Of a DNA stretch of 52,736 nucleotides, positions 1-52,736 are shown in pieces (within the stretch, counting starts at the first letter, position 1; each line of letters starts with the position of its first letter). The position numbers were made by a program, and so were the translations under genes. Where the stretch lies: contig NZ_MRCD01000066.1 in the NCBI RefSeq assembly GCF_001904745.1, positions 1-52,736 on the forward strand, written 5' to 3'. The notes beneath the pieces are model-generated. The model saw nothing but the letters and a program-made list of their open reading frames with translations. It was not told the DNA's origin and did not search any database. Source of the stretch: Calothrix sp. HK-06. GTDB lineage: Bacteria > Cyanobacteriota > Cyanobacteriia > Cyanobacteriales > Nostocaceae.

Positions 1-320
1 ACTACAGGCATCCTAGAACTTATCAAAGACGAGGTATATTTAGTATTGATGAACCAAGCCCTACAATTAGAAGTGTAAATCGACCTGTTCCCAAAAGTTA
101 TAGAGGGCATCCTGGAGATGCGGCGCCTATCAGTTCTAATTTACGTCCATTAACTACTATAGAACGAAGCTATATACAAACATTTCCTAAAGATTTTATT
201 TTTGATGAACAAAATCAATCAAAAACTGATTTAGAACAAATGATTGGTAATGCAGTACCAGTAAAATTAGCTGAATTTGTCGCCAGATGTCTGCTCCAAC
301 ACATAAAAGATAAACTGTAG
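1..320 (+). CDS. DNA (cytosine-5-)-methyltransferase, C-terminal 105 residues (cut by window edge)
   Basis: The frame is open from the first base (first full codon at 3) to TAG at 318-320. It encodes the end of a C5-cytosine DNA methyltransferase. The sequence shows EPSPTIRSVNRP, then RGHPGDA, then the motif-IX-like stretch RPLTTIERSYIQTFP, and the final motif X IGNAVPVKLAEFVA, which helps form the SAM pocket. The catalytic Pro-Cys motif and the target recognition domain lie outside the window, so specificity cannot be read. From memory the tail looks like the M.BanI/M.HgiCI group, which acts on GGYRCC; that set includes GGCGCC, the hexamer enriched here (inference). No partner restriction gene is visible within the window. 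The stop codon lies inside the first arm of a dispersed GTAGGTTGGGTT repeat. Confidence 0.9.
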   Translation, partial: YRHPRTYQRRGIFSIDEPSPTIRSVNRPVPKSYRGHPGDAAPISSNLRPLTTIERSYIQTFPKDFIFDEQNQSKTDLEQMIGNAVPVKLAEFVARCLLQHIKDKL

Positions 321-370
321 GTTGGGTTCCGGCTTTGCGTTCACGGAGTGTCCCGCAGGGAAACCCAACC
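319..370. repeat. Dispersed inverted repeat, GTTGGGTT/AACCCAAC family, copy 1
   Basis: The arm GGTTGGGTTCC (320-330) is matched by GGAAACCCAACC (359-370). The element fills the gap between the methyltransferase and the convergent SLH gene and could fold as a bidirectional hairpin, although no T-run follows. A second copy lies behind argB at 20652-20763. In both copies the TAG at the left edge is the stop codon of the upstream gene. Confidence 0.8.
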
Positions 371-385
371 CACAAGATGGTAAAT

Positions 386-2449
386 TTAACTGACGGCGAT
401 TACTACACCTGGACTTTCGTTGGCTAGTCTGTCAACGGCGCATACAGCATATTGTCCTGGTTCTACGGTGGCGAAGTTTGTGCCGCGACTTAGAACGCGC
501 TGTAGTGTCCAGTTATCTCCACTGCGTCTGTATAAAGTCCAAGAACGAATTTCGCGCGTATCTCCAGGTTGCCAAGACAGGCGCCGCGAAGCTACTTGAA
601 GTTGAGTTGGTGGAGATGGTGGGTTAGAATTACGCCAAGGCATGGTCGGCGCCAGTGCGGGGGTATTATATAGAGATTGTCGGAATTTATCGGCGATACC
701 TTGAACATTTTTGCTGATGACACTCAGACTAAAGAAGATGTTGCCTAGAGATAAATCGTTAACCAGGTTGCGGCTAATTTTTACCTGTTTTTCGATTTCT
801 TCATCTTTCCAAGCTTTGCCATCTTTGTCATCGAGTTTTCCAAGATTATTCCCTGCATAAACATGGCGTTGCTTTATATTAATTTCTGTCCACCATTTGA
901 GTAAAACAGGGTAACTTTGTTTAGTTTGGTCGGTAGGCCAGTACAGTTGTGGAGCGATATAATCTACCAAACCTTGTTCAACCCATTTCTTTGAGTCGGC
1001 ATAAAGTACAGCGAAAGCATCTAACCCAGTAATTCCTGCTGGTTGTCCAGGTCTATAAATACCAAAGGGACTAATACCAAATTTTACATTTGGTTTTGCT
1101 GCTCTAATTCCTTGTGATAACCGTAATACCATTTGATTGACGTTTTCACGGCGCCAATCTTCTAAACTTAAATTACCGCCTGCATTGCGATATGCTGCAT
1201 AAGTTTTATTATCTGGAAAACTTTGTCCTTCTATTGGGTAAGGATAAAAGTAGTCATCAAGGTGAATACCATCAACGTCGTAACGCTCTAGCACATCCAT
1301 AATTACATTGTACGCGCGGTCTTGCACTATTTTGGCGCCTGGATCCATCCATAGTTGGTTGTCCCATTGGTATACTACATCAGGGTTTGTAACAGCAAGA
1401 TGAGGACGGGCAAGATTACCTTGTCGAATTGAAGTTTTCGCGCGGTAAGGATTAAACCATGCGTGTAGTTCAATATTGCGTTTACGACATTCAGCAATAG
1501 CAAACTCTAATGGGTCATATCCGGGTGCTTGACCTTGTGTACCAGAGAACCAAGCGCTCCAAGGTTCTAACTGTGAACTGTAAGCTGCATCTCCTTCAGG
1601 ACGTACTTGAAATACAAGCGCGTTGAAATTTAATTGTTGAAGTCTGGTGATAATTTGTAGTAATTCAGCTTTTTGCTGGTCGGCAGATAACCCTGGTTTC
1701 GACGGAAAATCAATATTCCATACACACGTTAACCAGGCGCCGCGAAATTCACGACGATGACTCACACGAACTGTACCTGTTGGTGCTGGTGATGGAGTAG
1801 GGGTAGGAGTAGGGGTAGGACGTGGTGGGGTTGTAGTTTGTCGAGGTGAAACTAAAAAGTTGGAGGCAATTTTTGGAACTTCGCCAATGTACACTAAACC
1901 TTGATAGATAAACGCTGCTACATCAGCGCGAATTGCGGCTAAATTCGGATTGAGTAATCTTGTATTGGGGTGGCTTGATACTATTTCAGCACTAGTTGCT
2001 ATTGCTACCTGATTTCTTGCATACCCAGGAATTTGTACGGAATCTTCATAGATTTGCGGTAAGCTATTAAGTAAATCAGGTCTTATTTTTGACGCAATGT
2101 CTAAACCTGCAACTAGGGATAATAAAACTTCTAGACGCGAAATTCGGTTATCGGGGCGAAAACGATTATCAGGGAAACCGTTGAGAAAGCCTGTTTCAAA
2201 AGCTGTTTGAATTGCTGAGAAAGCCCAAGAATTTGCAGGTACATCTACAAAAGGTATGTATTGGCGCCTTTTCGGAATCTTGGTAAAGGCTTTAGTTATG
2301 ATTGCCGCATACTCTGCACGTGTGATTGAGTTATCAGGACGAAAGACACCGTTTTGTCCTGTAACTACACCACGTCGCAGCAATGGCTCGATAAATGGAC
2401 GTGCCCAGTGATTTTGAATATCAGAAAACGTTGTAGTATTAGATACCAT
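386..2449 (-). CDS. SLH-domain glycosyl-hydrolase-like protein (GHL10/DUF187 family)
   Basis: The protein has 687 residues. Three S-layer-homology units occupy about 8-57, 67-117 and 134-193 (first one FSDIQNHWARPFIEPLLRRG, with the following RPDNSITRAE). A Pro/Thr linker runs about 205-228, and a GHL10 TIM-barrel-type domain about 231-550 (EFRGAWLTCVWN; GIHLDDYFYP). A small beta-rich C-terminal domain follows. SLH units bind peptidoglycan-linked polymers or reach the outer membrane; GHL10 proteins are predicted to cleave glycans at the envelope. Substrate is unknown. No signal peptide is seen at the N-terminus, and an in-frame TAA sits two codons before the ATG, so the start is not simply mis-set upstream. 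It is convergent with the methyltransferase gene. Confidence 0.88.
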   Translation of the reverse strand: MVSNTTTFSDIQNHWARPFIEPLLRRGVVTGQNGVFRPDNSITRAEYAAIITKAFTKIPKRRQYIPFVDVPANSWAFSAIQTAFETGFLNGFPDNRFRPDNRISRLEVLLSLVAGLDIASKIRPDLLNSLPQIYEDSVQIPGYARNQVAIATSAEIVSSHPNTRLLNPNLAAIRADVAAFIYQGLVYIGEVPKIASNFLVSPRQTTTPPRPTPTPTPTPSPAPTGTVRVSHRREFRGAWLTCVWNIDFPSKPGLSADQQKAELLQIITRLQQLNFNALVFQVRPEGDAAYSSQLEPWSAWFSGTQGQAPGYDPLEFAIAECRKRNIELHAWFNPYRAKTSIRQGNLARPHLAVTNPDVVYQWDNQLWMDPGAKIVQDRAYNVIMDVLERYDVDGIHLDDYFYPYPIEGQSFPDNKTYAAYRNAGGNLSLEDWRRENVNQMVLRLSQGIRAAKPNVKFGISPFGIYRPGQPAGITGLDAFAVLYADSKKWVEQGLVDYIAPQLYWPTDQTKQSYPVLLKWWTEINIKQRHVYAGNNLGKLDDKDGKAWKDEEIEKQVKISRNLVNDLSLGNIFFSLSVISKNVQGIADKFRQSLYNTPALAPTMPWRNSNPPSPPTQLQVASRRLSWQPGDTREIRSWTLYRRSGDNWTLQRVLSRGTNFATVEPGQYAVCAVDRLANESPGVVIAVS

Positions 2450-2530
2450 TGTTTAACTTGTATATTCGGTTTACTGGGATAAATTGTAGACTGCTTTGTT
2501 ATTTTGGGCACAATAAAAAAGAGAAACCAT

Positions 2531-2597
2531 AGAAACCCGGTTTCTTGGTTGATGACTTGTAATGAAAACAATGATTTTGTATAGAAACCGGGTTTCT
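2531..2597. repeat. Twin-palindrome element (AGAAACCCGGTTTCT / AGAAACCGGGTTTCT), copy 1
   Basis: Two 15-bp palindromes, at 2531-2545 and 2583-2597, are exact reverse complements of each other and are separated by 37 bases. The spacer shares the pattern GTTGA...AACAATG...TTTTGT with the copy at 28409-28474. The element lies in the gap between two divergent genes. Confidence 0.85.
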
Positions 2598-2685
2598 GAA
2601 ACAATTTTGTATTTTTGCCTATCTTGGCTTTTAAGCTACAACTGTTTTCACCTGCAATTAGTTAAAGTTAATTGATTGATGAGTA

Positions 2686-3147
2686 ATGATTTTTAAAAGC
2701 GTGCGAAAGCGTAACTTATTTTACATTTTATTTACACTTGTTTTAATTGGTGTTATGGGTTTTTCGTATTTATCCGAAAAGTCGCCTGTTTTAGGGTGTC
2801 AATGGTGGGGTTTTTCTGATAATACTCCTAAATATTATGTGTATCCTGAAAAGCTAGTTGTTAAACCTTGGCATGGACAGCATCATGTATATGCTGTTTT
2901 TACGATTCCCGGTGGCTATCTTAATGATAAGCAGTTTACCCTCAATATTGAGGGTGATAAAACTTATTGTGGTATTCTTGCTTATGCTGGAACTACTGAA
3001 TTTGAAGGTGTTCGCGCGAAACCTGGATACTATTTGATGAAGGGTTTGTTAAATACTCGTATTGCTTTGTGGGTTATTTCTCAAGGTAAGGGTGATGAGT
3101 TGAAACAACCAACTAATTGGAAAGTTGGTTATTCCAAGATTAAATGA
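2686..3147 (+). CDS. Small membrane-anchored protein of unknown function
   Basis: The protein has 153 residues and is not recognised. The start ATG is followed by a basic stretch (MIFKSVRKRN) and a hydrophobic helix at about 11-29, which fits an uncleaved signal anchor or a cleaved signal peptide. The remaining 120 residues contain two cysteines (in LGCQWWG and KTYCGIL), many aromatic residues and alternating beta-strand-like segments, suggesting a small secreted beta domain, perhaps with a disulfide. It is convergent with the S9 peptidase gene, 15 bases away. It does not look like a shadow of another gene, and base usage matches the surroundings. Confidence 0.7.
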   Translation: MIFKSVRKRNLFYILFTLVLIGVMGFSYLSEKSPVLGCQWWGFSDNTPKYYVYPEKLVVKPWHGQHHVYAVFTIPGGYLNDKQFTLNIEGDKTYCGILAYAGTTEFEGVRAKPGYYLMKGLLNTRIALWVISQGKGDELKQPTNWKVGYSKIK

Positions 3148-3162
3148 TTTTGGTGTTTATTT

Positions 3163-5112
3163 TTACATAAGGTGTTCTTGGATGAACATGATTGTTGCGT
3201 AAAATTGAAAATCTATGTTTCTTTTTTTGCTGAAACCATGTCCTTCGTCTTTTGCCATGAGATACCAAACGGGGATGTTGTTTTTTCGTACAGTTGCTAC
3301 TATTTGTTCGGCTTCATTTAATGGTACACGCGGGTCGTTTTTTCCGTGAATTACAAAGAGTGGTTTTTTGATACGGCTGGCGTTATTTAATGGCGATATT
3401 TTTAAGAGAAATTCGCGCATTTTCGGGTCTCGTTCGTCTCCATATTCTACTCTTCGTAAGTCTCTTCTATAACCTTCGGTTCTTTCTAAGAATGTGACAA
3501 AGTTGGATATTCCTACTATGTTTATTGAAGCGCGTATTCTTTCAGGATAGTTGGTTGCTACTGCTAGTGACATGTAACCACCGTAACTTCCACCTGTTAC
3601 TAACACTCGGTCTTTATCTAGCTGAGGTTGTGTTAATATCCAGTCTAATAAGGCGCCTATATCTTTTACTGAGTCTTCACGTTTAAATCCGTTATCTAGT
3701 TGTAGAAATGTTTTTCCGTACCCTGATGAACCTCGGACGTTGGGAAATATTACTGTTACACCTAATTCATTTATTATGTAATTAAGGCGCCCTAAAAAGC
3801 CAGGACGTGATTGCCCTTCGGGACCTCCATGAATATCAATTATTACCGGACGTTTGCCTGTAAATTTCGATGGGGGACGATACATAAACCCAGAAATTGT
3901 TTTACCGTCAAAGCTTTTCCATCTAATTAATTGAGCATCGGTGAACTTGGCTGTGTTGATACCACCTGTTTCGCTTTCTGTCCAACGTTCTATTTTGTTA
4001 CTCCGAATATTTAATGAATATACATCGGCTGTGGAACGTGCAGAAACTAATGTAAATCCTAAGTCCTCGTTATTTTTATGCCAGTTCGTGCCTAGTACTT
4101 GTCCTACAGGTAAATTAGGTAAGGGTTTTTCTTTACGTGTTGCTGTATCAAGAAGGTGTAATACACTGGTGCCATCTTCATTTGTAACGAAAGCCAAGTT
4201 TTTACCGTCGTCGGAAAGGTCAATATCTTCTACATCCCATTTAATATTAGTAGTTAGGTAAGTTGGCTGCATTGTTGCTAGGTCAACATATGCCAATCTT
4301 TGAAACTCTGATTCTTTATCGGTAACGACGTACAAACCTTTACCATCTTTACTAAATATGGCGCCATCGTAGGAAATTTTTTCTTTACCACCTTTGGGTG
4401 TAATAAGTTTCTTTTCTCCAGATGCTGCATCTAATAGCCATAAGTAGCTTTCATTTACAGAAACGTATTCTAAAACGAGTATTTTACTATCATCTGGTGC
4501 CCAGTCTAATGAACCCCAACCACCACCTTCGACTTGAGTAATAAGTTTATCGGTTTTGGGGTCTAATGGGTCAATAATATAAAAATCATTATCTTTACCA
4601 GTACGGCGGGTGGAGGTGTAAATTATTCTGTCACCTTTATTTGACCATCTACCACCACTGTTTTTTGATTTCCCGTCAGTGAGTAATGTGACATCACCTG
4701 TCGCGAAGTCATAACGGTAGTTTTGACTAAACTCATTTCCGCCAATATCTTTACTGAAAACAAAATATTCGCCTTGTGTTGGTTGAAAGCTTCCTCCTGC
4801 TACACGCTCAGGAAAAAAAGTTAACTGCTTGCGAGTGCCAAGAGGAAATTTGACGAGATGTACTTGTGGGGTGTCGGCGAAGCGTGTAGATATCAGCATT
4901 TCACGCCTTTTGGGGTGCCAACTTGCTAAACTCGCAGCGCGAAAATTCGTATAACGTTCAACGTTTTGGGCAATACTAACAGGAATGGGTGGAATTCCTT
5001 CCACAACTAGATTATCACCCGGTGTAATAGTTTGAGTTTGAGCAACAGCCATAAAAGCAGGTAGTAACACTACTGCTAGAAGGGTAGCAAAGAATTTTGA
5101 AAAAAATCGCAT
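3163..5112 (-). CDS. S9-family (prolyl oligopeptidase-type) serine peptidase, secreted
   Basis: The protein has 649 residues. An N-terminal signal peptide (about 1-24, ending AVAQ) is followed by a beta-propeller of WD40-like/TolB-like repeats to about residue 390, then an alpha/beta hydrolase domain. The catalytic triad is visible: Ser509 in GGSYGG, Asp593 in GKNDPRVP and His625 in DEGHGF. Enzymes of this type cleave short peptides, often after Pro or dipeptide-wise; the propeller restricts access. The protein probably works in the periplasm. It stands alone, with no obvious operon partner, and the TPR gene upstream on the same strand is separated by a repeat. Family assignment is firm; exact peptide specificity is unknown. 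Confidence 0.92.
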   Translation of the reverse strand: MRFFSKFFATLLAVVLLPAFMAVAQTQTITPGDNLVVEGIPPIPVSIAQNVERYTNFRAASLASWHPKRREMLISTRFADTPQVHLVKFPLGTRKQLTFFPERVAGGSFQPTQGEYFVFSKDIGGNEFSQNYRYDFATGDVTLLTDGKSKNSGGRWSNKGDRIIYTSTRRTGKDNDFYIIDPLDPKTDKLITQVEGGGWGSLDWAPDDSKILVLEYVSVNESYLWLLDAASGEKKLITPKGGKEKISYDGAIFSKDGKGLYVVTDKESEFQRLAYVDLATMQPTYLTTNIKWDVEDIDLSDDGKNLAFVTNEDGTSVLHLLDTATRKEKPLPNLPVGQVLGTNWHKNNEDLGFTLVSARSTADVYSLNIRSNKIERWTESETGGINTAKFTDAQLIRWKSFDGKTISGFMYRPPSKFTGKRPVIIDIHGGPEGQSRPGFLGRLNYIINELGVTVIFPNVRGSSGYGKTFLQLDNGFKREDSVKDIGALLDWILTQPQLDKDRVLVTGGSYGGYMSLAVATNYPERIRASINIVGISNFVTFLERTEGYRRDLRRVEYGDERDPKMREFLLKISPLNNASRIKKPLFVIHGKNDPRVPLNEAEQIVATVRKNNIPVWYLMAKDEGHGFSKKRNIDFQFYATIMFIQEHLM

Positions 5113-7429: not shown

Positions 7430-7751
7430 TTTAATTTAATTAATAAAAGAGAAAAAACTGTTTATAATTCTCTTCACGCCAAAAAAGCTTTTTACGACTT
7501 AAACCTAAATATTATTACTTCCACGCTAAGTATCTTTTCTAGCAGAAATATCAGTATCAGGAATTATCTAACAAATTCATCGTTAATTATTGTATTTTTT
7601 TTGTAAAAAATAAAAAAATATAATTATTTTTACTAATGTTCATATCATTAACTTTGAGGGTAGAAATATTAGCAATGGATGATTAACGAATATAACAAAT
7701 GAGTTATCCGTTACATCCGTTGCATCCATTGCAAGACGACAGTATAATTAT
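7430..7751. other. Intergenic stretch holding an ATCCGTTAC repeat
   Basis: About 320 AT-rich bases separate the methyltransferase start from the PhyH relic. The only structure seen is the inverted repeat described at 7672-7732. The stretch next to 7429 should hold the promoter of the methyltransferase gene, but no clear -35/-10 pair stands out. Confidence 0.5.
7672..7732. repeat. ATCCGTTAC-type repeat with inverted ends, copy 1
   Basis: GCAATGGATG (7672-7681) is the reverse complement of CATCCATTGC (7723-7732). Tandem-like 9-mers (ATCCGTTAC, ATCCGTTGC, ATCCATTGC) fill the right half. Related copies lie at 29991-30063 and 34264-34370. Confidence 0.8.
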
Positions 7752-8219
7752 TTACAACATTGATTTAAGATAGTGAAGTTCGATTAAATCGTGCTGCATT
7801 CCATAATCCTTACTAGCAAACTCAACCTGTAACATTAAGCGAGGTTCAGTTACTGGTGCGCTTCCTTTATGATAACCGAACGTATCTTCGGCAAATCCCC
7901 AACCGCGCGAACCTGTAATTGAAACTATATTTTCTTTTCCATAGTAATCTATCAAATCTTGCTCAGTCGCGCGCCCTCGCAATAGCTGATACAAAAGTTT
8001 CTTTCGATTATGGCTACCCAGTATATATACATGTAGACCACTATTCAAATCAACATCGGTTATATAGAAGAAAAACTTCAGAAATTTATAGTCATCAAGG
8101 TCGCAGTGAAAAACTTGTGCAGCTTTTGACTGTTCAAAAAAAGTTGAATTACTAGGGAAACTCCGAAAAAGCGAGTTTGATATATGTAATGGTTTCTTTT
8201 TAAGGTATTTTGCTGCAAT
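7752..8219 (-). pseudogene. 5'-truncated phytanoyl-CoA dioxygenase (PhyH)-like gene
   Basis: An open frame runs from 8219 (just after an in-frame TAA at 8220-8222) to the stop at 7752, about 155 residues without an ATG near the front. It reads as the C-terminal half of a PhyH-type Fe(II)/2-oxoglutarate dioxygenase. The metal site HxD is present in VFHCDLDDYKFLKFF, the distal His in EDTFGYHKG, and the 2-oxoglutarate Arg in PRLMLQVEF. The usual N-terminal 100 or more residues are absent; immediately upstream is the AIM24-like gene. A TTG at 8046-8048 would give only 98 residues and would lose the HxD motif. The simplest reading is a relic created by deletion. A rare start (ATT/TTG) making a short protein cannot be excluded. 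Confidence 0.75.
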
Positions 8220-8249
8220 TTACTGTAAAAAAACGTCATTTTGCAATTT

Positions 8250-8990
8250 TCAACTAATACCCATTCCATCTGTTTCAGATACTAATAGGCGCCCCCCTGA
8301 ATGGTTATTTACAGTGTAAGTCCACACATAGCCTTCACCACCGCCTTTGCCAAAGTATCCTAACTTCGAGTATTCTTCCTTTATCCCATTTGTAAAGCCT
8401 TTAACCATATCATAATCAGCGATTAAAACTTCGTCTTTTCTAAGCTCTATTACTTTTGCTGGCGCCAATGTTCCTGTAACAACTTTCGCATTTTGTCCTG
8501 GTAATGCTTTAATTGCAATTCTCCATCTGCCATCTACTGAACCTGCCATTTGGCGCCAATTTAACTTTTTGGCACCTAGTACCACATTATCAGAGCAAAA
8601 TTGGAATATACCATCATCAAATTCCCATTGCTCATCGTCTGTAATATCAATTGCAGTGTAGTCTAAAAAATAACCTTTCTGTTTTGGCTCAAGTTTGATT
8701 ATGCCTGTACCGCGATAAACGGGCGCATTATAATCAATCTCGGTCATTAATGATACCCAAATATCTTTAAGGCGATTATCGGTTTTGTAAACTCCGTAGC
8801 TCAATTTACCTAAACAACTGTGCATGGCGCCTTTTTGAACCACTACACCCGAATTTTCAAGTTTTATTTCTAATTGCTGGACAAAGGGAATATTTTTAGT
8901 GGGATGATAATACTTGTTTGTTTCTTTGTTGATATTGTTTTGTAGATACCACAAATCGGTTGGTTCTAAAATTTTTACAGAATGTAACAT
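8250..8990 (-). CDS. AIM24-family-like protein
   Basis: The protein has 246 residues with no signal peptide or membrane helix. The pattern fits the AIM24/TIGR00266 beta-fold: VVVQKGAMHSCLGKL near the front, then YRGTGIIKLEPKQKG, a glycine-rich GYFGKGGGEGYVWTY in the C-terminal part, and many short beta strands. AIM24 proteins have no agreed biochemical role. The mitochondrial member affects membrane organisation, and bacterial ones are often near membrane or stress genes. The stop codon lies about 30 bases upstream of the truncated PhyH frame. The start ATG is preceded by the GTAGGGGC-type repeat. I am fairly but not fully sure of the family. Confidence 0.6.
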   Translation of the reverse strand: MLHSVKILEPTDLWYLQNNINKETNKYYHPTKNIPFVQQLEIKLENSGVVVQKGAMHSCLGKLSYGVYKTDNRLKDIWVSLMTEIDYNAPVYRGTGIIKLEPKQKGYFLDYTAIDITDDEQWEFDDGIFQFCSDNVVLGAKKLNWRQMAGSVDGRWRIAIKALPGQNAKVVTGTLAPAKVIELRKDEVLIADYDMVKGFTNGIKEEYSKLGYFGKGGGEGYVWTYTVNNHSGGRLLVSETDGMGIS

Positions 8991-9002
8991 ACGTTATAGT
9001 AA

Positions 9003-9060
9003 GGGCGGGTTTAGGATGATTTTGAATTCAGTTTGAGCATATTTGTTAACCTGCCCCTAC
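9003..9060. repeat. Dispersed inverted repeat, GTAGGGGCGGGTT family, copy 2
   Basis: GGGCGGGTTTA (9003-9013) faces TTAACCTGCCCCTAC (9046-9060). It sits between the divergent AIM24-like and sfsA genes and therefore overlaps their promoter region. Any start codon for sfsA placed at 9043 would lie inside the repeat. Confidence 0.8.
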
Positions 9061-9069
9061 TATAATCCA

Positions 9070-9798
9070 ATGACTGATGATTATTTATACCGCTATCCAC
9101 CTTTATACTCTGGAATTTTCGTAAAACGCTACAAGCGATTTTTTGCGGATGTCGAACTTGCTTCAGGAGAAGTAGTCACTGCACACTGTCCCAATACTGG
9201 CCCGATGACGGGAGTATCAACACCAGGTAGTGCGGTTATGCTGTCGAAAAGCGACAATGAAGCACGCAAGTTAGCTTATACCCTGGAACTTATACAGGTC
9301 AACGATAATGAACCAACTTGGGTGGGCATTAATACTGTTTTACCCAATCGAATTATAAAGCTTGCCCTCACACAGCATTTATTTCCATCCCTTGGAAATT
9401 ACACTTTTATTAAAAGTGAAGTACCTTACGGAATTGACAAAAAGAGTCGTATTGATTTTTTGTTGACGGGGAATGATATAGAGTTACCTGTTTATGTTGA
9501 AGTCAAAAATACAACTTTGGCATCGGGTCGGTTAGCGCTGTTTCCTGATACAGAGACTACACGTGGACAAAAGCATTTGCGGGAGTTAACGGCTTTGTTA
9601 CCTCACAGTCGTGCGGTAATGCTTTATTTTATTAACCGAGCAGATTGTACTGAGTTTGCTCCAGGTGACAGCACTGACCCTGTATATGGTAAGTTGCTGA
9701 GAAATGCTTTTGCTATGGGTGTTGAAATATTACCTTGTAGATTTGAAATTACCCCCATTGGTGTTCGCTATTTAGGTTTGGCGCCATGTGTAATGTAA
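9070..9798 (+). CDS. sfsA: SfsA family protein (DNA/RNA nuclease-like)
   Basis: The protein has 242 residues from the ATG at 9070. A TTG at 9043 would add nine residues but lies inside the repeat, so ATG is preferred. SfsA landmarks are present: ANTGPMTG-like CPNTGPMTG near the front, DFLL with VEVKN (PD-(D/E)xK-type core), and the signature FPDTETTRGQKHLREL. The protein was named for sugar fermentation stimulation in E. coli; the fold is nuclease-like and binds DNA, but its physiological role is unsettled. It is convergent with ndhD. Length matches the family (about 230-250). Confidence 0.93.
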   Translation: MTDDYLYRYPPLYSGIFVKRYKRFFADVELASGEVVTAHCPNTGPMTGVSTPGSAVMLSKSDNEARKLAYTLELIQVNDNEPTWVGINTVLPNRIIKLALTQHLFPSLGNYTFIKSEVPYGIDKKSRIDFLLTGNDIELPVYVEVKNTTLASGRLALFPDTETTRGQKHLRELTALLPHSRAVMLYFINRADCTEFAPGDSTDPVYGKLLRNAFAMGVEILPCRFEITPIGVRYLGLAPCVM

Positions 9799-9879
9799 CA
9801 CGCAAAAAAAAAGCAGGCGCTTTCTACAGACGACTGCTAGTAAGGATTCAGAGGTAGAGGTTAACACAAACTGGTATAT

Positions 9880-11565
9880 CTATTTAAAAGTTCCTAAAAC
9901 AGTTGCAGTTTCTGTTTCTGAGATTGTAGGAGCTAATAACCCTTGAGCATAGATACCAGGATTGCTGTTTGCTATTTGCGTATAAGAGGAGCGTATTTGA
10001 GTATTAATTGCAACAGTTTTTGCATCGTACATTTTCATCGTAAATCTAGGATACAAACCGATACCGATAATCAGTACTAGGAAGCTAGCAGCAATAAATA
10101 CTTCGCGGGCGCTAGCATCGCGGTAAACTGATTTGGTAGGAAGAACGCAGTCGGTACCGAAACAAACTACATCTTCTGTTTCTAAAGCTTGTAAACCACT
10201 GCTTCCTATTTCGCATTGCAGTACGGCGCCGTTACCATAAAATACCTGTTTGAGCAACGATAATAGGTAAATTGGGGTAAGAATTACGCCAACAGCAGCT
10301 AGGAAAACGGTTACTGTACAGAATGTTGAACTGTAAATGTCACTGCTTGTCAGACCAACAAACACCGCGAGTTCGCTAGCAAAACCACTCATTCCTGGTA
10401 ACGCTAACGAAGCCATTGCGCCAATTGTAAACAGGGCAAATACTTTTGGCATTACCTGCCCAACACCACCCATTTCTTCCATTGCCATTGTGTGGGTTCG
10501 GTCGTAAGTTACACCAGCTAAGAAGAATAATACTGCTGCTATTAAACCGTGGGAAATCATTTGTAGCATGGCGCCATTGATTCCCAGGTCAGTAAACGAG
10601 GCGATACCTAGCAACACAAAACCCATGTGGGATACTGATGAATACGCCAACCGACGCTTCATGTTCTTTTGAGCCAACGAATTTAAGGCGCCGTAGATAA
10701 TATTGATGACACCAAGTATTGCTAAAACTGGAGCGAAATATATATGAGCATCACCAAGAAGCTCCATATTGATCCGAATCAACCCGTATCCACCCATTTT
10801 AAGGAGTACACCCGCTAAAATCATTGATACAGGAGCAGAAGCTTCACCGTGAGCATCAGGTAGCCAAGTATGTAACGGGAAAATTGCTAGCTTGACGCCA
10901 AATGCAATCAGTAACCCAGCATACAAAAAAAGTTCTAAACCAATTGGATAATCTTTTAAAGCGAGTGCAGCAATATCGAAAGTTAAATCGCCACCACCGT
11001 AAAGCCCCATTCCAAGAGCCGCTACAAGAATAAATATAGATGCTGCTGCTGTATATAGTATGAATTTTGTTGCTGCATAGCGACGTTTCTGTCCACCCCA
11101 AATCGAAACCAGTAAGTAAACGGGTACCAACTCGACTTCCCACATGATGAAGAACAGTAGCAAGTCTTGCGCCACGAACACGCCTATCTGCGCCGAATAT
11201 AGAACCAGCATCAGCGCATAAAATAAACGTGGGCGCCTGTCCACCTGCCATGCAGAGAAAATAGCGAGTGTCGTTACAAACCCAGCCAACAGTACCAGGG
11301 GAACTGACAATCCATCTACAGAAACCGCCCAATTTAGACCTATCTGGGGTACCCAGGCATAATTCTCCGCAAGCTGAAATTTCGCACTAGTTGCATCGTA
11401 GTGCTTCCAAAATGCATAGCACATCAGTACTAGGTCGGCGATACCTACTCCTAAAGCGTACCACCGCACTTGCTTGCCATCTTTATCAGGTAAAAACGGA
11501 ATTGCAAACGAAGCAACTAGTGGTAAGAAGATGATCGCGGTTAGCCAGGGAAAATGTTCCGCCAT
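9880..11565 (-). CDS. ndhD: NAD(P)H-quinone oxidoreductase (NDH-1) chain 4
   Basis: The protein has 561 residues and about 14 membrane helices. It is a proton-pumping antiporter-like subunit of the thylakoid NDH-1 complex, which takes electrons from ferredoxin to plastoquinone in respiration and cyclic flow. Family landmarks: [20 protein letters not shown] with the key Glu, [18 protein letters not shown] with the broken helix Lys, and [18 protein letters not shown]. Near residue 455-480 is a hydrophilic insert with Cys ([14 protein letters not shown]), which I recall from Nostocales NdhD proteins. ndhF is not seen beside it within the window. Whether it is NdhD1 (respiratory) or NdhD2 cannot be settled from motifs alone. 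Confidence 0.95.
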
Positions 11566-12843
11566 GTCAATAAGAAAAAATACTCATTTTTGTTATGAGG
11601 TTATTTTACTAAACTTTGTAAAGTTTTGTGCATAAGTCTTCACCATAGTTATGCATAACACTAACTTATAGTGCAGATTTGCCAAAATCTGATATGCTAT
11701 TTTAGTATTATTGTTAATCTTCATAAAACTTTATATTTTGTAATACCAAGTCGATATACTCAGGACTGCAAATCGTATTGTCATGAAAATCTGACAATTG
11801 GGAAATCTCAGTATATAGATAGTAATTCGGTTGGAAGTATTAAGTAGACAGGGAAAAGCGTTCTTCTCAGTATAATAGTTCTAATAAATACAACGGGCTA
11901 CCGTCGCAAAAAAAGGTATTGCATTAACTGCTGTGAATAGCTGCTGTAGATAGAATTTGCATGGTATGAGGTGTGTGAGGTGAGTATTTTTCTGGGTTCA
12001 CTATGCATTTTTGTATCAAGTGGGTTAATATTGTTAGTCCTGAGTGTCAAACTTGTTTTGAATTGATAAAATACGTTGTGTACAATAAGAACAGTTTGTC
12101 AAGTCTCACAGGGTTGACATTTCAGTAGCACGTCCTCGTGCGATTAAAATTAAATAAGCTAGAGTTAAATTAATTAGCGACGTATAGCTAATTCTTACTG
12201 TACGCCCGCAGAATTTTTGCTGCTGGTTGTCTTAATTTCAAGCGGAGCCACTTGATTAGAATATTGGCTTGTTATCTAAAAGAACGGTGATTGCGGCATC
12301 AAACTTGCTCCCTATCACTTGTCTATAGGAAAAGGCGCCTTGAAGTATAGATGCTAGTTAAGGCATTTATGTTTTGTCTAGGGTCTAAGTATCGAGTTTT
12401 CTGCCTTCTAGCAAGAAAATGCTTGTTACGTCCCCTTATTTGTTCTGCTGTATCCCGTAGCGAGTTAGGAGTGAGTAGTAGTTACCGTTGGGATGTGTTT
12501 TCACCCGTATTTCATTCAAAAATATGCTGCAAGTTGTGTAATGCAAAACTTTTAGAAATAGTTTTTGGTAACAAAAGCACTTATGAGAACGCGAGTCTTA
12601 CCAAATAATTGAGGTTTTGGCAAATCCGTGCTAACTTTCCCTGCATTTTGACGTGCCTCTTAAAAGAAAGTAACAACAATTTTTTAGTGGTTCTAGTTAA
12701 TATTTGGGTAAAGTTCAAGTGTACGGTTGCCGCTCGAAATTTCTATTTGATATAACAGGCTTTTGTTGATTTAAGTTCCTTCACGGATATTACACAAAAT
12801 AAGTGCAATTTTTGTGAAACAGGCTACAATCTAAAAAGTCTTG

Positions 12844-12886
12844 ACAAAAAAATATCTTCATCTGATTAGTAAAGATGTTTTTTTGT
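12844..12886. terminator. AT-rich hairpin, terminator-like, upstream of sigA
   Basis: ACAAAAAAATATCTT (12844-12858) pairs with AAGATGTTTTTTTGT (12872-12886) over a 13-base loop, with a single T·G wobble. Reading rightward, the 3' arm is itself a T-run, as in some intrinsic terminators. The stem is AT-rich, so it is weak. A TTGACA box overlaps the left arm. Confidence 0.4.
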
Positions 12887-13210
12887 AAGGTGTAATTTAG
12901 GTTGAAGGTCTGTAACAGGTAATTCAATCGCAACTGCATGTTGCGGAAGCAACATAAGAGTGTTTTTCACTTAATAAACAATGCCAAACTCAATGCTACT
13001 TCTCAAAGAAAGGCTCAATCTATGAGTATTTAATCGGCAGTAGTTAGTGGAGTGCGTGCAGTATGTATTGAAAACCCTTTTGAAGCATTCTTGCTGTAGG
13101 GTAAGTTTCGGAAATGTGTTCGCATATTTTTTTAGAATGAAATATGTAACATGTCTGAACATTTTTTAGCTAAATTAGTCATTACCCTAGTTGTAGGGAT
13201 GATATTCAAA

Positions 13211-13228
13211 GCTCGCTCTCACGCGAGC
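13211..13228. promoter_or_regulatory. GC-rich hairpin in the sigA leader
   Basis: GCTCGC (13211-13216) pairs with GCGAGC (13223-13228) over a six-base loop, ending about 33 bases before the AAGGAG ribosome-binding site. It could act in the mRNA leader or as a protein-binding palindrome. No function is shown. Confidence 0.4.
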
Positions 13229-13282
13229 AACTGCAATTTTGTCTTGAGTAATTGATTCTGCAAGGAGCATGAGGAACGCGGC

Positions 13283-14455
13283 ATGAACCAGGCTAATAAC
13301 GTACTCGAAAATATATTTCAGCCTGATCTAGTAGTCACAAATCAGCCTGATTTCGAGTTAGAGGAACTCTTAATAGATGATGAAGAGGACTTGCTACTTG
13401 GCGATGATGGCGAAATCGATGATTTTCTAGAACCGACATCTGATGAGGACGACGCAAAGTCTGGAAAAGCCGCTAAATCGCGTCGTCGGGCACAGTCCAA
13501 GAAGAAGCATTACACCGAAGATTCGATCCGTCTTTACTTACAAGAAATCGGTCGAATTCGTTTGCTTCGTGCGGATGAAGAAATCGAATTAGCGCGTAAA
13601 ATTGCTGATTTGCTCGAATTGGAAAGAATTCGAGAAAAATTGTCCCAGCAATTAGACCGTGACCCCAGAGATAGCGAGTGGGCTGAGGCTGTGCAATTAA
13701 CATTACCACAATTCCGCTATCGTTTGCACATCGGGCGCCGGGCAAAAGATAAAATGGTGCAGTCCAACCTGCGTCTTGTGGTTTCAATTGCCAAGAAGTA
13801 TATGAATCGTGGGCTGTCTTTCCAAGATTTGATACAAGAAGGAAGTCTTGGTTTGATTCGCGCGGCTGAGAAATTTGACCATGAAAAAGGTTACAAATTC
13901 TCAACTTATGCGACATGGTGGATTCGTCAAGCTATTACACGCGCAATTGCCGACCAATCACGTACTATTCGTTTACCAGTCCACCTTTACGAAACTATTT
14001 CGCGTATAAAGAAAACAACCAAGTTACTTTCTCAAGAAATGGGTCGCAAACCTACCGAGGAAGAAATTGCTACCCGTATGGAGATGACTATTGAGAAGTT
14101 AAGGTTTATTGCTAAGTCAGCGCAATTACCTATATCGTTAGAAACTCCTATCGGTAAGGAAGAAGATTCTCGATTAGGCGACTTTATTGAATCGGATGGT
14201 GAAACACCCGAAGACCAAGTCTCTAAGAATTTGTTGCGCGAAGACCTCGAAAAAGTTCTTGATAGTCTTAGCCCTCGTGAACGTGATGTACTGCGTTTAC
14301 GATATGGACTAGATGACGGTCGCATGAAAACTTTAGAAGAAATTGGACAAATCTTTAACGTCACACGCGAACGAATTCGTCAAATTGAAGCTAAAGCACT
14401 TCGTAAGTTGCGCCATCCTAACCGCAATAGCGTTTTGAAAGAGTATATTCGTTAA
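13283..14455 (+). CDS. sigA: RNA polymerase principal sigma factor (group 1, SigA/RpoD)
   Basis: The protein has 390 residues. It has an acidic N-terminal region (about 20-60), region 1.2 ([16 protein letters not shown]), region 2 with the -10-binding helix ([20 protein letters not shown]), region 3, and region 4 with the -35-reading helix-turn-helix ([20 protein letters not shown]). Length and sequence match the vegetative sigma factor of cyanobacteria, which directs transcription of housekeeping genes. The start ATG follows GAGG by eight bases, with AAGGAG further up. A five-codon upstream frame starting at 13269 ends in TGA overlapping the sigA ATG (ATGA). Group 2 sigma factors are similar, but the acidic N-terminus and overall length favour SigA. 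Confidence 0.95.
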
Positions 14456-14480
14456 AGCATATTTTCAAGTGTCTCTCTTA

Positions 14481-15259: not shown

Positions 15260-17767
15260 TTAGGGTTGTGGTATTTCAACGACTGAAATTATTTTCTCGT
15301 CACGATTTAGTTGGAGGATACTTTCACCCGTACTATCGCGGTTTGAAAGCTTAACAGTATCAATTGCCACACGGACTAATCGCTGTTGGTTGGTAATAAG
15401 CGCTACTTCCCCTCGTGGTGTTGCATTTGTAATTCCGGCTAAAGCATCAGTTTTACTTGTAAATTTACAGGATTGAGTGCCAATATCACCTCGGTTAGCT
15501 AGTCGTAAATTCGAGAGTGAAATTTGTTTGGCATAACCCATTTGAGTTACCAGCAATATATTAGTGGAATTTTTCGCGCTCACGAAACCTGCCATTGTTT
15601 CGTTCAAACGTAGACGCATTGCTTGTACACCCATTGCGGTGCGTCCCATTATTGCTAATTGTTCGTCATTTATTGCAAATCTTAACAGGCGCCCACCAGA
15701 AGAAGCCAGTACAACAGAGGCACCAGGATTTATAAACTGTGTAGATAGCAGTTCATCCGAGTCTTTAAGTTTGGTGATTGTAATACCGCGACGTGATAAG
15801 TTATTAAACTCCATCAACGATAATCGTTTAATACGTCCTTGCTTAGTCAAGAGAATCATTTCATCGTTTTGGGAATTCTCTGGCTGCATGAACCGAGTGA
15901 TAATTGCTTCGGTTGCACCTTGAGCGGTGTTACTAAGTAAAGTAATTAATGGAGTTCCACGAGTATTATTGCGTCCGGTTGAAACTGGAATATCACCAAC
16001 TCGTATTGGATAAACTTTGGCGCCACTAGTAATGATAAGTAATTCCTTCTCGGTATTAGTATCTACCGTTTGAAGAATAAAATCGTTTTCAGATAAATTA
16101 TTATCGCCCTTAGGTTTCTTCCCGTTGGGTTGGGAACGTCGAACATAACCGCGATGAGTCAGTTCGAGTATTGTTTCCTCGCTCTTAACTTCTGGTTTTG
16201 AAGTTGGATTTGATTTTGTGTCGTCGTCAGAATTTTTCTTTGCTCCCTTCGGTGGCTCAAACTTCCCTTCAGCAGCGATACGAGTTCGACGCTCGTCACC
16301 AAACTTTTTCTTCAAAGATCGAAAATCTTTTTTCAGAGATTTTAGTAACTCCTTGCGGTCACCTAACAATCGTTGAAGATTAGTAATTTGCTCTCTAAGT
16401 TCGTTAAACTCTTGCTCAAGATTTTGTCGTTCTAAACCAGTTAGGCGCCTTAACGGCATAGCAAGTATGGCATCAGCTTGAACTTCGGTCAACTCTAACC
16501 GACTGGCAATTTGAACTTTTGCCGTGCTGCCATCAGGCGCCTGTCGCAATATACTAATAAGTTCATCCAAATTTGATAAAGCTTTGAGTAAACCTTCTAC
16601 CAAATGCGAGCGATTTTGTGCCTTGCCCAATTCATAAGTATAGCGACGTACTAAGGTTTGCTCGCGGAAACGTAAAAACTCCAGCAATAAATTACGTAAA
16701 CTCAACTGCCTTGGCTGACCGTCAACCAAAGCGAGCAAAATGGCGCCGAAGTTACTTTGTAAAGCACTTTGATGATATAAAGCTTGAAGAATTTCATGTG
16801 GGTTAATGTCACGTTTGAGTTCAATAACAACCCGCATCCCATCCCGGTCACTTTCATCACGGATATCAGAAATGCCATTTATCCGTCCTTGGTTAACAAG
16901 TTCGGCAATTTTTTCAATCCAACCCGCTTTATTTACCTGATAAGGTAACTCAGTTACAATAATCGCTGTTTTACGCTTCGTTCCTTTAGTTGCTGCGATT
17001 TCTTCAATTGTAGCAATTCCACGTAAAACAATACTACCCCGACCCGTAGTATAAGCCTCGCGAATTCCTGAATCACCAACAATTTCACCACCCGTTGGAA
17101 AATCGGGCCCAGGTATTAATTCAAACAGTTTGCTATCAGGTAATTCTGGATTATCAATGAGGGCAACCAACCCATCGACTATTTCATTTAAATTATGCGG
17201 GGGTATATTCGTCGCCATCCCCACAGCAATACCCGCACAACCATTGAGGATTAAAAATGGTAACTGCGCTGGTAAAACAGTTGGTTCTTGCTGCGAATTA
17301 TCAAAGTTGCCAATAAACTCAACTGTTTCTTCTCCAATTTCGGTCAACATTCCCTCATGACCAAGGGAAGCAAGACGAGTTTCTGTGTACCGCATTGCTG
17401 CTGGAGGGTCGTTATCGACGCTACCAAAATTACCGTGACCTGCGAGTAAAGGATAACGACTAGAAAAATCTTGTACCAAACGAACTAATGCATCATAAAC
17501 CGATTGGTCGCCATGTGGGTGATATTTACCGAGAACGTCGCCGACTACGCGCGCGCATTTTCGGTAGGGTCGGTCAGGTGTAAGTCCTAATTCATGCATC
17601 GCGTATAAAATGCGACGATGAACAGGCTTTAAACCATCGCGGACATCGGGTAACGCTCGCCCGACAATCACACTCATGGCATATTCAAGATAAGACCGTT
17701 GCATCTCGGTGTGCAAGGCTGTGGTGATTACCTGTCCCCCTGAGAGAAGGTTTAACTGTTTTGCCAT
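15260..17767 (-). CDS. Type IIA DNA topoisomerase subunit A (GyrA/ParC-type)
   Basis: The protein has 835 residues. The breakage-reunion domain is intact: active-site Tyr127 in [10 protein letters not shown], and the quinolone region [10 protein letters not shown] at 83-92. A coiled-coil tower (about 430-480) and a C-terminal beta-pinwheel (about 540-830) follow. The canonical GyrA box QRRGGKG is not found where it should be, after [10 protein letters not shown]; the stretch reads [10 protein letters not shown]. The Ser83 position of E. coli GyrA is Gln88 here. Both points suggest a ParC-like or diverged second subunit rather than the supercoiling GyrA, but cyanobacterial pinwheels vary. It is a single gene; no subunit B gene is beside it. 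Confidence 0.9.
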
Positions 17768-29633: not shown

Positions 29634-29987
29634 GTGACTGTGAAACGGAAAGCGAAACCAAGGATAGCAATATTACGTGAAAGAGCTGGTTTGACCCAGT
29701 TAGAGTTATCACGTCTAGTCGGTGTCACCGAAAGTACCATTCAAAATTGGGAAAGCGGAAGAACTGGCTCTGATCATATTGAACGTATAGTAAAGTTTTG
29801 TAAGGCTCTTGGCTGCCAGGTAGAGGATTTAATTGAGTATGTAAGCGACTCCGAAGAAGAGAAACTAGGCAAACCGAGTTCTTTGAGTGACATCCGCACT
29901 CTTTTGGGAACAGAACAGCCTATAGGCGCCGGCGCCGATACTTCTAAGCAAGCAAATGCTGTTGAGGAAATAGGGGTTAGGGAATAA
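29634..29987 (+). CDS. XRE-family helix-turn-helix regulator
   Basis: The protein has 117 residues with GTG start at 29634 (GGAG four bases before) or GTG at 29640 (better spacing). The Cro/C1-type HTH spans about 10-65: LRERAGLTQLELSRLVGVTE then STIQNWESGR, and a following helix ALGCQVEDLIEYV. The tail is acidic and flexible (SDSEEEKLGK) and contains IGAGADTS, encoded by two back-to-back GGCGCC hexamers. It probably binds DNA as a dimer. It is divergent from the run of secreted-protein genes, and a 9-mer repeat begins four bases after its stop. Confidence 0.88.
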   Translation: MTVKRKAKPRIAILRERAGLTQLELSRLVGVTESTIQNWESGRTGSDHIERIVKFCKALGCQVEDLIEYVSDSEEEKLGKPSSLSDIRTLLGTEQPIGAGADTSKQANAVEEIGVRE

Positions 29988-51536: not shown

Positions 51537-51564
51537 GTTTGCTTCCCCTCAGCGAACAAATCAA

Positions 51565-52668
51565 TTAAATACAATTAGATAATTGATACGAACATGCTTG
51601 GTCGATAACTTTTTCGACCTTGCTAAAAAACGCTTGTTCTGAAAAATTAGACACCGCGTGTTCACGGATATCTTCGTAGTCCCAATAGATTTCCCTGGAT
51701 TCTAAAAGCGCTGTTTGTAAGGACTCTGGCGTTTGCCGTTTAAAGAATACACCTGTTTTACCTGGTACTTGAGTATCTAATACTCCACCAGCACCAAAAG
51801 CAATTACAGGAGTTCCGCTAGCATTCGCTTCGACTGGAACTAATCCATAATCCTCTAATGCTGCAACGATAACCGATTTTGCGTTGGCAAACAACTGAGT
51901 GCGTTGTAAATCGGTAACGTGTCCGACAAACTCAATATTCGAGAGCGCTTTCGATTTTAACCTCTCCCGCTCTGGACCGTTGCCTGATATCAACAGGCGC
52001 CACCCTAACCAGTTAAAAGCTTCGACTATTATATCAAGGCGCTTGTAGCTAATCATCCTGGCTGAAGCAAGATAGTAATCATCTTTACTATTTGAGAACA
52101 GAAACTTGCCTGTGTCGATTGGATAATTGATGACTATTGCTCTTTTTCCGTAGATGCTTTGAATTCGACGAGCTACTACACTCGAATTAGCTATATAAAG
52201 GTCAGGTTCTTGTGCGTATGTCAAGTCAACACGACGCATCATGTCAAAAATTTGTTCGATTATTGGGGCAAAGTACCGATAGTCACCATACTCACGTAAG
52301 TAAGTTTCGGTATCCCACAAAAATCTGGTGACGTTATGGCAAAAGCAAACATGACGCGCTCCAGGCCTTTTACGAACTGCTTTTGCAAAACTTGTACTAC
52401 TACTAATAATTAAGTCGTATGCTTCTAAATCTAAAGAACGAAATGCTGGGAAATATAAAGGCGCCATAAGTCGAAAGTATTTAGTGGCACCGGGAATATT
52501 TTGTAAAAAAGTCGTGTTAACAACTCTAGAACCCAGGTCTATCGTTTGTTCGCGGTCGTATACAGAAGTAAAAATATCGGCTTCTGGATAGCGTTTACAC
52601 AGTAACTCAAACACACGCTCTGCCCCACCGCACTGAGTTAAGTAGTCATGGACAAGAGCAATTTTCAT
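51565..52668 (-). CDS. Family 4 glycosyltransferase (GT-B)
   Basis: The protein has 367 residues from ATG 52668 (AGGGAA nine bases before); an extension to 52707 lacks a ribosome site. GT-B features: MKIALVHDYLTQCGGAERVF at the front, a linker, donor domain VGHVTDLQRTQLFANAKSVI and the E-x7-E type motif ALEDYGLVPVEANASGTPVI. It would transfer a hexose from a nucleotide sugar to the lipid-linked chain. Upstream of the Wzc-like gene by about 28 bases, so probably one transcript. It resembles the HepB kind of transferase, but I am not sure. Confidence 0.88.
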   Translation of the reverse strand: MKIALVHDYLTQCGGAERVFELLCKRYPEADIFTSVYDREQTIDLGSRVVNTTFLQNIPGATKYFRLMAPLYFPAFRSLDLEAYDLIISSSTSFAKAVRKRPGARHVCFCHNVTRFLWDTETYLREYGDYRYFAPIIEQIFDMMRRVDLTYAQEPDLYIANSSVVARRIQSIYGKRAIVINYPIDTGKFLFSNSKDDYYLASARMISYKRLDIIVEAFNWLGWRLLISGNGPERERLKSKALSNIEFVGHVTDLQRTQLFANAKSVIVAALEDYGLVPVEANASGTPVIAFGAGGVLDTQVPGKTGVFFKRQTPESLQTALLESREIYWDYEDIREHAVSNFSEQAFFSKVEKVIDQACSYQLSNCI

Positions 52669-52736
52669 AATTTTTCCCTGATATTTGAAGCTATCGAGCG
52701 CGAACAACTAAAACGCGCTCCGGAGTAACCATTTAA

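What the first reader, a model, noticed from the sequence alone, without database searches (positions are those of the whole stretch)
1..52736. GGCGCC replaces the usual HIP1 octamer as the over-represented palindrome
By eye I count about 85 GGCGCC sites, one per roughly 620 bases, spread over genes and intergenic DNA. At an assumed 40% GC about 3-4 would be expected by chance. GCGATCGC, the common cyanobacterial HIP1, was not found. Flanking bases vary, so the core is the hexamer. Two sites are back to back at 29925-29936. Alternate highly iterated palindromes have been described in cyanobacteria and tied to DNA methyltransferases. Fixed motifs at this density may serve as methylation, repair or recombination marks.
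Basis: partly seen in the sequence, partly recalled or inferred. Interest (0 to 1): 0.7.

Follow-up and report, generated by a model that had tools for sequence, protein, structure and literature searches.

The report
Calothrix genus-wide GGCGCC palindrome replaces HIP1
A whole genus of filamentous cyanobacteria has dropped the usual repeated DNA word of its relatives and instead keeps a different six-letter word about every 600 bases, apparently as a methylated site that evolution protects letter by letter.

Summary
In detail: 85 GGCGCC and 0 GCGATCGC in the window, 15,449 GGCGCC in the 9.99-Mb genome. GGCGCC as an alternate HIP is already published for Calothrix PCC 7103 (Elhai 2015, PMC4390886), a congener of the window's genome.

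New here: (1) it is a genus trait: 7 of 7 genomes carry 1.15-1.71 sites/kb and almost no HIP1; the other 210 family genomes carry at most 0.11/kb. (2) Sites are protected base by base: in close pairs, third codon positions inside sites diverge 2.6- to 13-fold less than the same codons elsewhere, while flanking bases evolve normally. (3) The window's left end carries the C-terminal part of a C5-methyltransferase found at the same place in all seven genomes, without the HindVP endonuclease that lies beside 19 of 31 relatives outside the genus; family target GRCGYC. (4) Sites break mainly at the central CG, where M.BsaHI methylates.

Best reading: a domesticated restriction methyltransferase marks GG(5mC)GCC, and selection or site-directed restoration keeps the sites. 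Methylation, reader and function are untested.

The parts
1..52736 (.). 85 GGCGCC sites spread over genes and intergenic DNA (palindromic, no strand); first at 122, last at 52460
   Evidence: all positions listed
29925..29936. two GGCGCC sites back to back. Pairs this close are rare: 0 pairs at 6-11 b spacing where 25.9 were expected in the six stretches (which did not include this window)
3..317 (+). C-terminal 105 residues of a GRCGYC-type C5-cytosine methyltransferase (called gM1 here), cut off by the contig end. A matching N-terminal piece lies at the end of contig C29 (45-305, minus strand), where its last residues before the contig end depart from the relatives; whether the gene is whole in this genome is not known. 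Intact at the same place in the 6 other genomes of the genus
386..2449 (-). gene next to gM1 (687 aa; only weak NCBIfam matches), the right-hand neighbour in the window
9880..11565 (-). NAD(P)H-quinone oxidoreductase subunit 4: cyanobacterial host marker
13283..14455 (+). RpoD/SigA of cyanobacterial type: host marker; near the start of the stretch (13000-32000) searched across the genus
15260..17767 (-). DNA gyrase subunit A, within the stretch searched across the genus

Best explanation
GGCGCC is the genome-wide alternate HIP of one GTDB genus, called Calothrix here after its record titles (PCC 7103, PCC 7716, NIES-4105, Dulcicalothrix PCC 7102, two MAGs and the window's genome). Shown: it occurs at 1.15-1.71 per kb in all seven genomes, HIP1 is nearly gone, the six bases are protected from substitution even where changes would be silent, and the usual way of breaking is C to T (or G to A) at the central CG. 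Shown: a C5-methyltransferase of the BsaHI/HindV (GRCGYC) family sits at one conserved place in all seven, with no HindVP endonuclease gene near it in the six named loci. Inferred: this domesticated enzyme methylates GG(5mC)GCC; the methylated site is read by an unknown factor that took over what HIP1 does elsewhere (strand marking for repair, or chromosome organisation); and loss of sites is slightly harmful, so selection or site-directed restoration keeps them while 5mC deamination keeps breaking some into GGTGCC.
For: Genus trait: 7 of 7 g1 genomes with 7,475-20,380 sites (about 1,150-1,711/Mb) against at most 111/Mb in 210 other genomes of the family; HIP1 31-163 per g1 genome, 0.6 to 4 times its reversed control of 37-75. 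Conservation of the hexamer between orthologous stretches: 0.855 at 94.4% identity (rank 2 of 1,998), 0.76-0.79 at 87% and 0.65-0.67 at 82% (rank 1 of 1,102-1,577), against 0.74, 0.47 and 0.33 for all hexamers. Codon-matched third positions, close pairs: C6 11/438 against 262/1323 background; C5 2/159 against 226/1536; G1 2 of 169 against 25.9 expected; G2 0 of 158 against 22.5; C3 37/442 against 243/1112; G4 12/174 against 360/1540 (Fisher P 6e-8 to 6e-23 for C6, C3, G4, C5, treating pairs that share one reference genome as independent). Third positions 1-40 b away diverge normally, 0.113-0.125 against 0.045 inside. Non-ORF sites are conserved more than other non-ORF hexamers (105 of 127 against 0.696). 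Exit route: 168 of 229 single-base differences are GGTGCC/GGCACC. Methyltransferase: PF00145; same place in all seven; recognition-region residues nearly identical to enzymes beside RE_HindVP (PF09519, E 9e-157 and 2e-154 for the two partners tested); M.BsaHI methylates the central C of GRCGYC (PMC2413257, passages). A resident plasmid stretch has 53 sites in 45 kb.
Against: No methylation data. The predicted target GRCGYC is wider than the motif: GACGTC and GGCGTC/GACGCC are depleted (O/E 0.08-0.37). In other NGCGCN contexts C-to-T at the central CG is as frequent (8.6%) as in GGCGCC (8.8%), so hypermutability of C3 is seen only relative to the other, protected positions; weaker constraint at C3 would look the same. 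Against the most distant genome (82%) all in-site third positions together differ little from flanks (0.306 against 0.339-0.371) and G1 changes in 14 of 44 against 21.5 expected. Such an enzyme is not enough: 48 intact carriers in the family outside the genus have at most 43 GGCGCC/Mb, and 12 of 31 gM1-type loci outside the genus also show no HindVP partner within about 1.5 kb, so lack of a partner is not special to the genus. A second C5-methylase of the size and score of L012 is listed in all seven genomes and is not excluded as the relevant enzyme. No regular spacing beyond 100 b. Selection and very fast biased restoration are not separated.
Confidence: 0.57

Rival explanations
1. Mutational by-product (Elhai's GmeC-dependent mismatch-repair ratchet): repair that reads G-5mC preserves new mutations creating GG(5mC)GCC, so sites pile up without any function of their own.
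For: Explains why only the GG..CC member of GRCGYC is abundant; one-off words other than GGTGCC are depleted (O/E 0.23-0.81 at first order), as fast conversion would give; GGTGCC variants are nearly always young (tip gains 26, tip losses 0).
Against: Gain bias alone predicts normal loss rates, yet silent positions inside sites change 2.6- to 13-fold less than codon-matched ones in close pairs and flanks are normal; very fast restoration could still mimic this. The model saturates at about 1 kb, but site pairs show no repulsion from 100 to 3,200 b (observed/expected 1.00-1.07). The second enzyme copy that the model says may have been critical is not seen in PCC 7102 or in the MAG C42_A2020_038 (no second match of 50% identity or more listed), which carry 19,393 and 7,475 sites. 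Elhai's statements that exceptional HIPs are sporadic and do not persist fail for this genus.
Confidence: 0.22
2. Biased DNA uptake or recombination drive: fragments with GGCGCC are taken up or recombined preferentially, as with uptake sequences of Haemophilus and Neisseria.
For: Density, base-precise homogeneity and Poisson-like spacing are compatible with a molecular drive (PMC1939737, passages).
Against: The motif is a bare palindromic hexamer with no clear extended consensus; no competence data; the link with loss of HIP1 and with a methyltransferase is not explained.
Confidence: 0.07
3. Binding site of a nucleoid or replication protein that reads GGCGCC regardless of methylation.
For: All six bases are protected in close pairs, in genes and, as whole hexamers, outside them, and sites are spread evenly (no empty 5-kb bin in 80, for each of two genomes).
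Against: Does not explain the C-to-T exit route at the base methylated by M.BsaHI nor the conserved methyltransferase.
Confidence: 0.1
4. Composition, codon usage or Gly-Ala content produces the excess.
For: Commonest frame is GGC|GCC, Gly-Ala (253 of 476 in-frame sites in the 400-kb PCC 7103 stretch).
Against: About 22-fold excess over a first-order Markov background, all three frames and non-ORF DNA affected, codon-matched conservation, absence in 210 related genomes.
Confidence: 0.01

Closest known systems
GGCGCC alternate HIP of Calothrix PCC 7103 (Elhai 2015, PMC4390886)
   Same: Same motif, same density class, HIP1 lost, GRCGYC-type methyltransferase present; PCC 7103 is genome G297 here and lies in the same genus as the window's genome.
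   Different: Elhai had one genome plus 19 kb of strain D253 and called exceptional HIPs sporadic and not persisting in clades; here it is found in 7 of 7 genomes of the genus, with sites conserved across about 18% divergence and base-precise at silent sites in close pairs.
HIP1 (GCGATCGC)
   Same: GC-rich palindrome about once per kb, linked to solitary methyltransferases; Xu et al. 2018 argued selection for it (seen only as cited in PMC6604393, passages; the paper itself is not held).
   Different: Different sequence; HIP1 is near background in the whole genus.
BsaHI / HgiDI / HindV restriction-modification family (GRCGYC)
   Same: gM1 is a C5-methylase with nearly the same recognition-region residues as relatives beside RE_HindVP; a 54%-identical plasmid enzyme is annotated hindVM.
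   Different: No HindVP match in the six named loci of the genus, about 21 kb each, and the genomes are full of the site, which is absent from all 12 loci that do have a HindVP match.
DNA uptake sequences of Pasteurellaceae and Neisseriaceae
   Same: Thousands of copies of one short word, homogeneous in sequence.
   Different: Those are longer and not palindromes (PMC1939737, passages); no link to a methyltransferase is known to me (recalled).

Membership tests
Highly iterated palindromes (HIP class of Elhai 2015) | short GC-rich palindrome, about 1,000-2,000 per Mb, extreme outlier against background | tested here: met
   about 1,550 per Mb in G000; top 6-mer ratio in the window; outlier in the family
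Highly iterated palindromes (HIP class of Elhai 2015) | HIP1 low or nearly absent when an alternate HIP is present | tested here: met
   GCGATCGC 31-163 per g1 genome, 0.6 to 4 times its reversed control
Highly iterated palindromes (HIP class of Elhai 2015) | a methyltransferase able to recognise the site is encoded | tested here: met
   by homology only: gM1, BsaHI/HindV type
Highly iterated palindromes (HIP class of Elhai 2015) | sites are methylated in the cell | not testable with these tools
   no methylation reads
HIP1 | sequence GCGATCGC over-represented | tested here: not met
   0 in window, 88 in genome against 66 for the reversed control
BsaHI/HindV-type GRCGYC C5-methyltransferase | C5-methylase domain | tested here: met
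   PF00145 E 5.9e-66 for the PCC 7103 copy
BsaHI/HindV-type GRCGYC C5-methyltransferase | recognition-region residues of the family | tested here: met
   alignment of 6 gM1, 4 HindVP-linked copies from L188, L196, L204, L207 and 8 further relatives; M.BsaHI itself was not aligned
BsaHI/HindV-type restriction-modification system | partner endonuclease (RE_HindVP) beside the methylase | tested here: not met
   none in 6 of 6 named g1 loci of about 21 kb; partner ORF in 0 of 7 g1 loci but 19 of 31 gM1-type loci outside the genus, flanks about 1.5 kb
BsaHI/HindV-type GRCGYC C5-methyltransferase | methylates the central C of GRCGYC | tested here: inconclusive
   substitution pattern agrees but a context control does not single out C3
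DNA uptake sequence | biased uptake of DNA carrying the word | not testable with these tools
   none

The most novel reading that the evidence does not exclude
A whole genus switched its genome-wide epigenetic word: a restriction methyltransferase parted from its endonuclease, became a core gene, and a site that is rare in related genomes became a mark present 7,000-20,000 times per genome and kept by selection at every base. HIP-type sites would then be functional marks whose sequence is interchangeable, set by whichever resident methyltransferase takes over when HIP1 is lost.
Probability: 0.42. Interest if true: 0.8.

Novelty: new member of a known kind. Interest (0 to 1): 0.58.

Why it matters
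What HIP1 is for has been open since the 1990s (recalled), partly because almost every cyanobacterium has it. A genus that replaced it, with one conserved methyltransferase as the suspect, gives a natural swap experiment: delete one gene in Calothrix PCC 7103 or PCC 7716 and ask whether methylation, mutation rate or chromosome structure changes. The silent-site conservation argues that this alternate HIP is maintained and not a sporadic accident, as had been suggested.

Tried and rejected
Avoidance as a test of specificity: carriers of intact gM1-type enzymes outside the genus (48) against non-carriers (153), with 9 broken or fragmentary carriers set aside; overall GGCGCC is lower in carriers (P 0.004), but the reversed word CCGCGG is too (P 0.0002), and within genera the difference is not significant (P 0.15). 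Inconclusive.

Independent replicates: among 36 order genomes picked mostly for high GGCGCC I first took G059 and G136 as replicates. Sequence showed G136's top palindrome to be GCCGGC, not GGCGCC, so it was dropped; G059 remains a weak one (GGCGCC top palindrome, O/E 3.1 in 33 kb at 54% GC; 9,489 sites against 304-343 in the three congeners searched). In the order sample of 243, 45 genomes carry a full-length gM1-type enzyme (2 of them with a stop; counted by hand from the E-value-sorted, capped list); 42 keep HIP1 (518 copies or more) and have at most 215 GGCGCC; 3 have lost HIP1 and 2 of the 3 are GGCGCC-rich, one being the window's own genome. Of 7 HIP1-poor genomes (150 copies or fewer) without such an enzyme none exceeds 0.26 GGCGCC/kb.

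Family f9 looked like a second GGCGCC lineage (G170 0.53/kb, G008 0.40/kb); the 14 f9 genomes searched keep HIP1 (2,362-15,293 copies) and show no gM1-type enzyme, so moderate GGCGCC excess can occur without one. Its cause was not examined.

Very-short-patch repair at C3 alone: rejected as the sole cause because positions 1, 2, 5 and 6 are protected more than 3 and 4. Reading tip losses against gains (36 against 0 clear and 14 ambiguous) as a net decline: not accepted, because some control words also show more losses than gains under the same rule (GCAGCA 22:10, AAGCTT 15:4), although others are balanced (CAAGCT 10:8, TTGCAA 7:7). Regular spacing: none beyond 100 b; the deficit of close pairs (0.30 at 12-25 b, 0.62 at 25-50 b, 0.84 at 50-100 b) may be hairpin avoidance, since CGCGCG shows it too.

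Not tested: vsr, mutH-like or GATC/CGATCG methylase genes in the genus; long-period (10-90 kb) periodicity; HindVP elsewhere in the genus's genomes; whether the HindVP partners found are active (PMC2413257, passages, reports that HindVP itself showed no cutting in vitro).
Full report
Observation. The window (39.3% GC) holds exactly 85 GGCGCC and no GCGATCGC. The whole genome G000 (9.99 Mb, 243 contigs) holds 15,449, and GCGATCGC is at background (88 against 66 for the reversed control). Against a first-order background with the sites masked, GGCGCC is about 22-fold over-represented in 453 kb. NCBIfam hits (NDH-1 subunit 4, cyanobacterial RpoD, GyrA) show a cyanobacterium.

Prior knowledge. Elhai 2015 (PMC4390886; abstract and passages, outline, the first part of section 3.4 and sections 3.5 and 2.5.3) reported GGCGCC as the alternate HIP of Calothrix PCC 7103 and of 19 kb of strain D253, noted two GRCGYC-type methyltransferases in PCC 7103, called exceptional HIPs sporadic and non-persisting, and proposed that they are by-products of G-5mC-dependent mismatch repair.

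A genus trait. In 217 genomes of the family, all 7 of the genus carry 7,475-20,380 GGCGCC; the other 210 carry at most 1,053 (111 per Mb). HIP1 is 31-163 copies in the genus, 0.6 to 4 times the reversed control; elsewhere it is above 1,000 copies except in four genomes (G411 30, G423 535, G420 574, G413 990). Of these four, G420 carries a gM1-type enzyme and has a single GGCGCC. Other strains named Calothrix that fall in other GTDB genera (C. elsteri, CSU_2_0, C. rhizosoleniae) have HIP1 and no GGCGCC in their loci. A 45-kb stretch of a NIES-4105 plasmid has 53 sites.

Maintenance. Orthologous stretches were aligned: about 567 kb of close pairs (PCC 7103 against four others, so not independent; 94.4% identity), 127 kb against NIES-4105 (87%) and about 80 kb against C42_A2020_038 (82%), the last two against both PCC 7103 and PCC 7716. 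GGCGCC was conserved in 0.855, 0.76-0.79 and 0.65-0.67 of cases; all hexamers in 0.743, 0.47 and 0.33; it ranked second, first and first. At third codon positions with the first two bases conserved, in-site positions of close pairs changed far less than the same codons elsewhere: C6 11/438 against 262/1323, C5 2/159 against 226/1536, G1 2/169 against 25.9 expected, G2 0/158 against 22.5, C3 37/442 against 243/1112, G4 12/174 against 360/1540. Third positions 1 to 40 b away are normal, so this is not a cold region. Against the most distant genome the protection is weaker: C6 32/128 against 246/395, G1 14/44 against 21.5 expected, and all in-site third positions together 0.306 against 0.339-0.371 in the flanks.

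How sites break. In close pairs 168 of 229 single-base differences, with 46 multiple ones set aside, are GGCGCC against GGTGCC/GGCACC; the share of sites in that state is 5-10% at all three divergences. In four-way alignments 28 of 44 single-genome losses are of this kind, and with NIES-4105 as outgroup 26 of 36 tip losses. This fits 5mC at C3 with removal of the broken form. A caution: the same transition is equally common in other NGCGCN words (8.6%), so what is special is that C3 is less protected than positions 1, 2, 5 and 6, through higher mutation or weaker constraint.

Methyltransferase. G000 has ten C5-methylase matches. One, at window 3-317, is the C-terminal end of a gene cut by the contig edge; the gene is intact in the six other genomes, between a gene of about 391 aa and the gene corresponding to window 386-2449. 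In G000 its two pieces lie at two contig ends and its integrity is unknown. Outside the genus, 48 family genomes have intact relatives of at least 55% identity. Of 31 gM1-type loci outside the genus with about 1.5-kb flanks, 19 have a neighbouring ORF family whose two tested members match RE_HindVP; the other 12 do not, so a missing partner is not unique to the genus. None of the 7 genus loci has one, nor do six of six named loci of about 21 kb. The recognition region is nearly identical in solitary and linked enzymes. M.BsaHI, of the same family as HindV, recognises GRCGYC and methylates its central C (PMC2413257, passages). RIMS-seq lists 5mC at GRCGYC in Haemophilus influenzae Rd, the source of HindV, with a footnote about the detection threshold (PMC8565308, passages). 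Of the 25 named loci, the 12 with a HindVP match (one of them partial) contain no GGCGCC; the 7 without a match outside the genus have 0-10, none clearly above the expectation from GC. Other enzymes remain possible: a C5-methylase match of the size and score of L012 (370-398 aa) is listed in each of the seven genomes but was not aligned.

One copy suffices. PCC 7102 and C42_A2020_038 show no second match of 50% identity or more yet have 19,393 and 7,475 sites, so a second copy, which Elhai thought may have been critical, does not seem to be required.

Mechanism and doubt. I favour a methylated site maintained because its loss is slightly harmful. Selection and very fast directed restoration look alike in these data. 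Sites are placed like a Poisson process beyond 100 b, which speaks against a mark whose value depends on distance to the next one. I found no paper in the held library reporting the genus-wide distribution or silent-site conservation of GGCGCC; Xu et al. 2018, which argues selection for HIP1, was seen only as a citation and is not held.

Noticed in passing
window and L019-L038: GATC (O/E 0.11) and GGCC (0.15) are strongly avoided, and several 6-mer palindromes are absent from these 453 kb (CCATGG, TTCGAA, GAGCTC, GTGCAC, CGTACG, CGGCCG, CCGCGG).
   Followed up: no
L019-L038 plus window; G297 stretch: CGCGCG (6-fold) and GCGCGC (3-fold) are over-represented besides GGCGCC, in varied contexts; close pairs of CGCGCG are also rare.
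   Followed up: partly
L226, L228, L152 (G136, another family of the order): This genome lacks HIP1 (81 copies) and has GCCGGC as its top palindrome (O/E 5.3 in 36 kb), resembling the rCCGGy HIP that Elhai reported for Oscillatoria PCC 10802.
   Followed up: partly
G059 (L225, L227): One member of a genus has 9,489 GGCGCC where three congeners have 304-343, lacks HIP1 and alone of the four shows a gM1-type enzyme (53% identical): possible recent independent switch.
   Followed up: partly
L011 and L013 (G000 contig C60): Two further gM1-type methylase genes lie in tandem (83% and 63% identical to gM1); beside them an ORF matching DpdA (PF23859, E 6.6e-10).
   Followed up: no
L077:1656-2960 (PCC 7103), also near gM1 in G000 and G296: A 661-aa C5-methylase plus a 435-aa neighbour (no significant Pfam, NCBIfam or PADLOC match) is inserted near gM1 in some of the genomes only: possibly a restriction-modification pair.
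   Followed up: no
G423 (10.7 Mb, family f1): HIP1 is low (535 copies) and GGCGCC is only 326; its own over-represented word, if any, is unknown.
   Followed up: no
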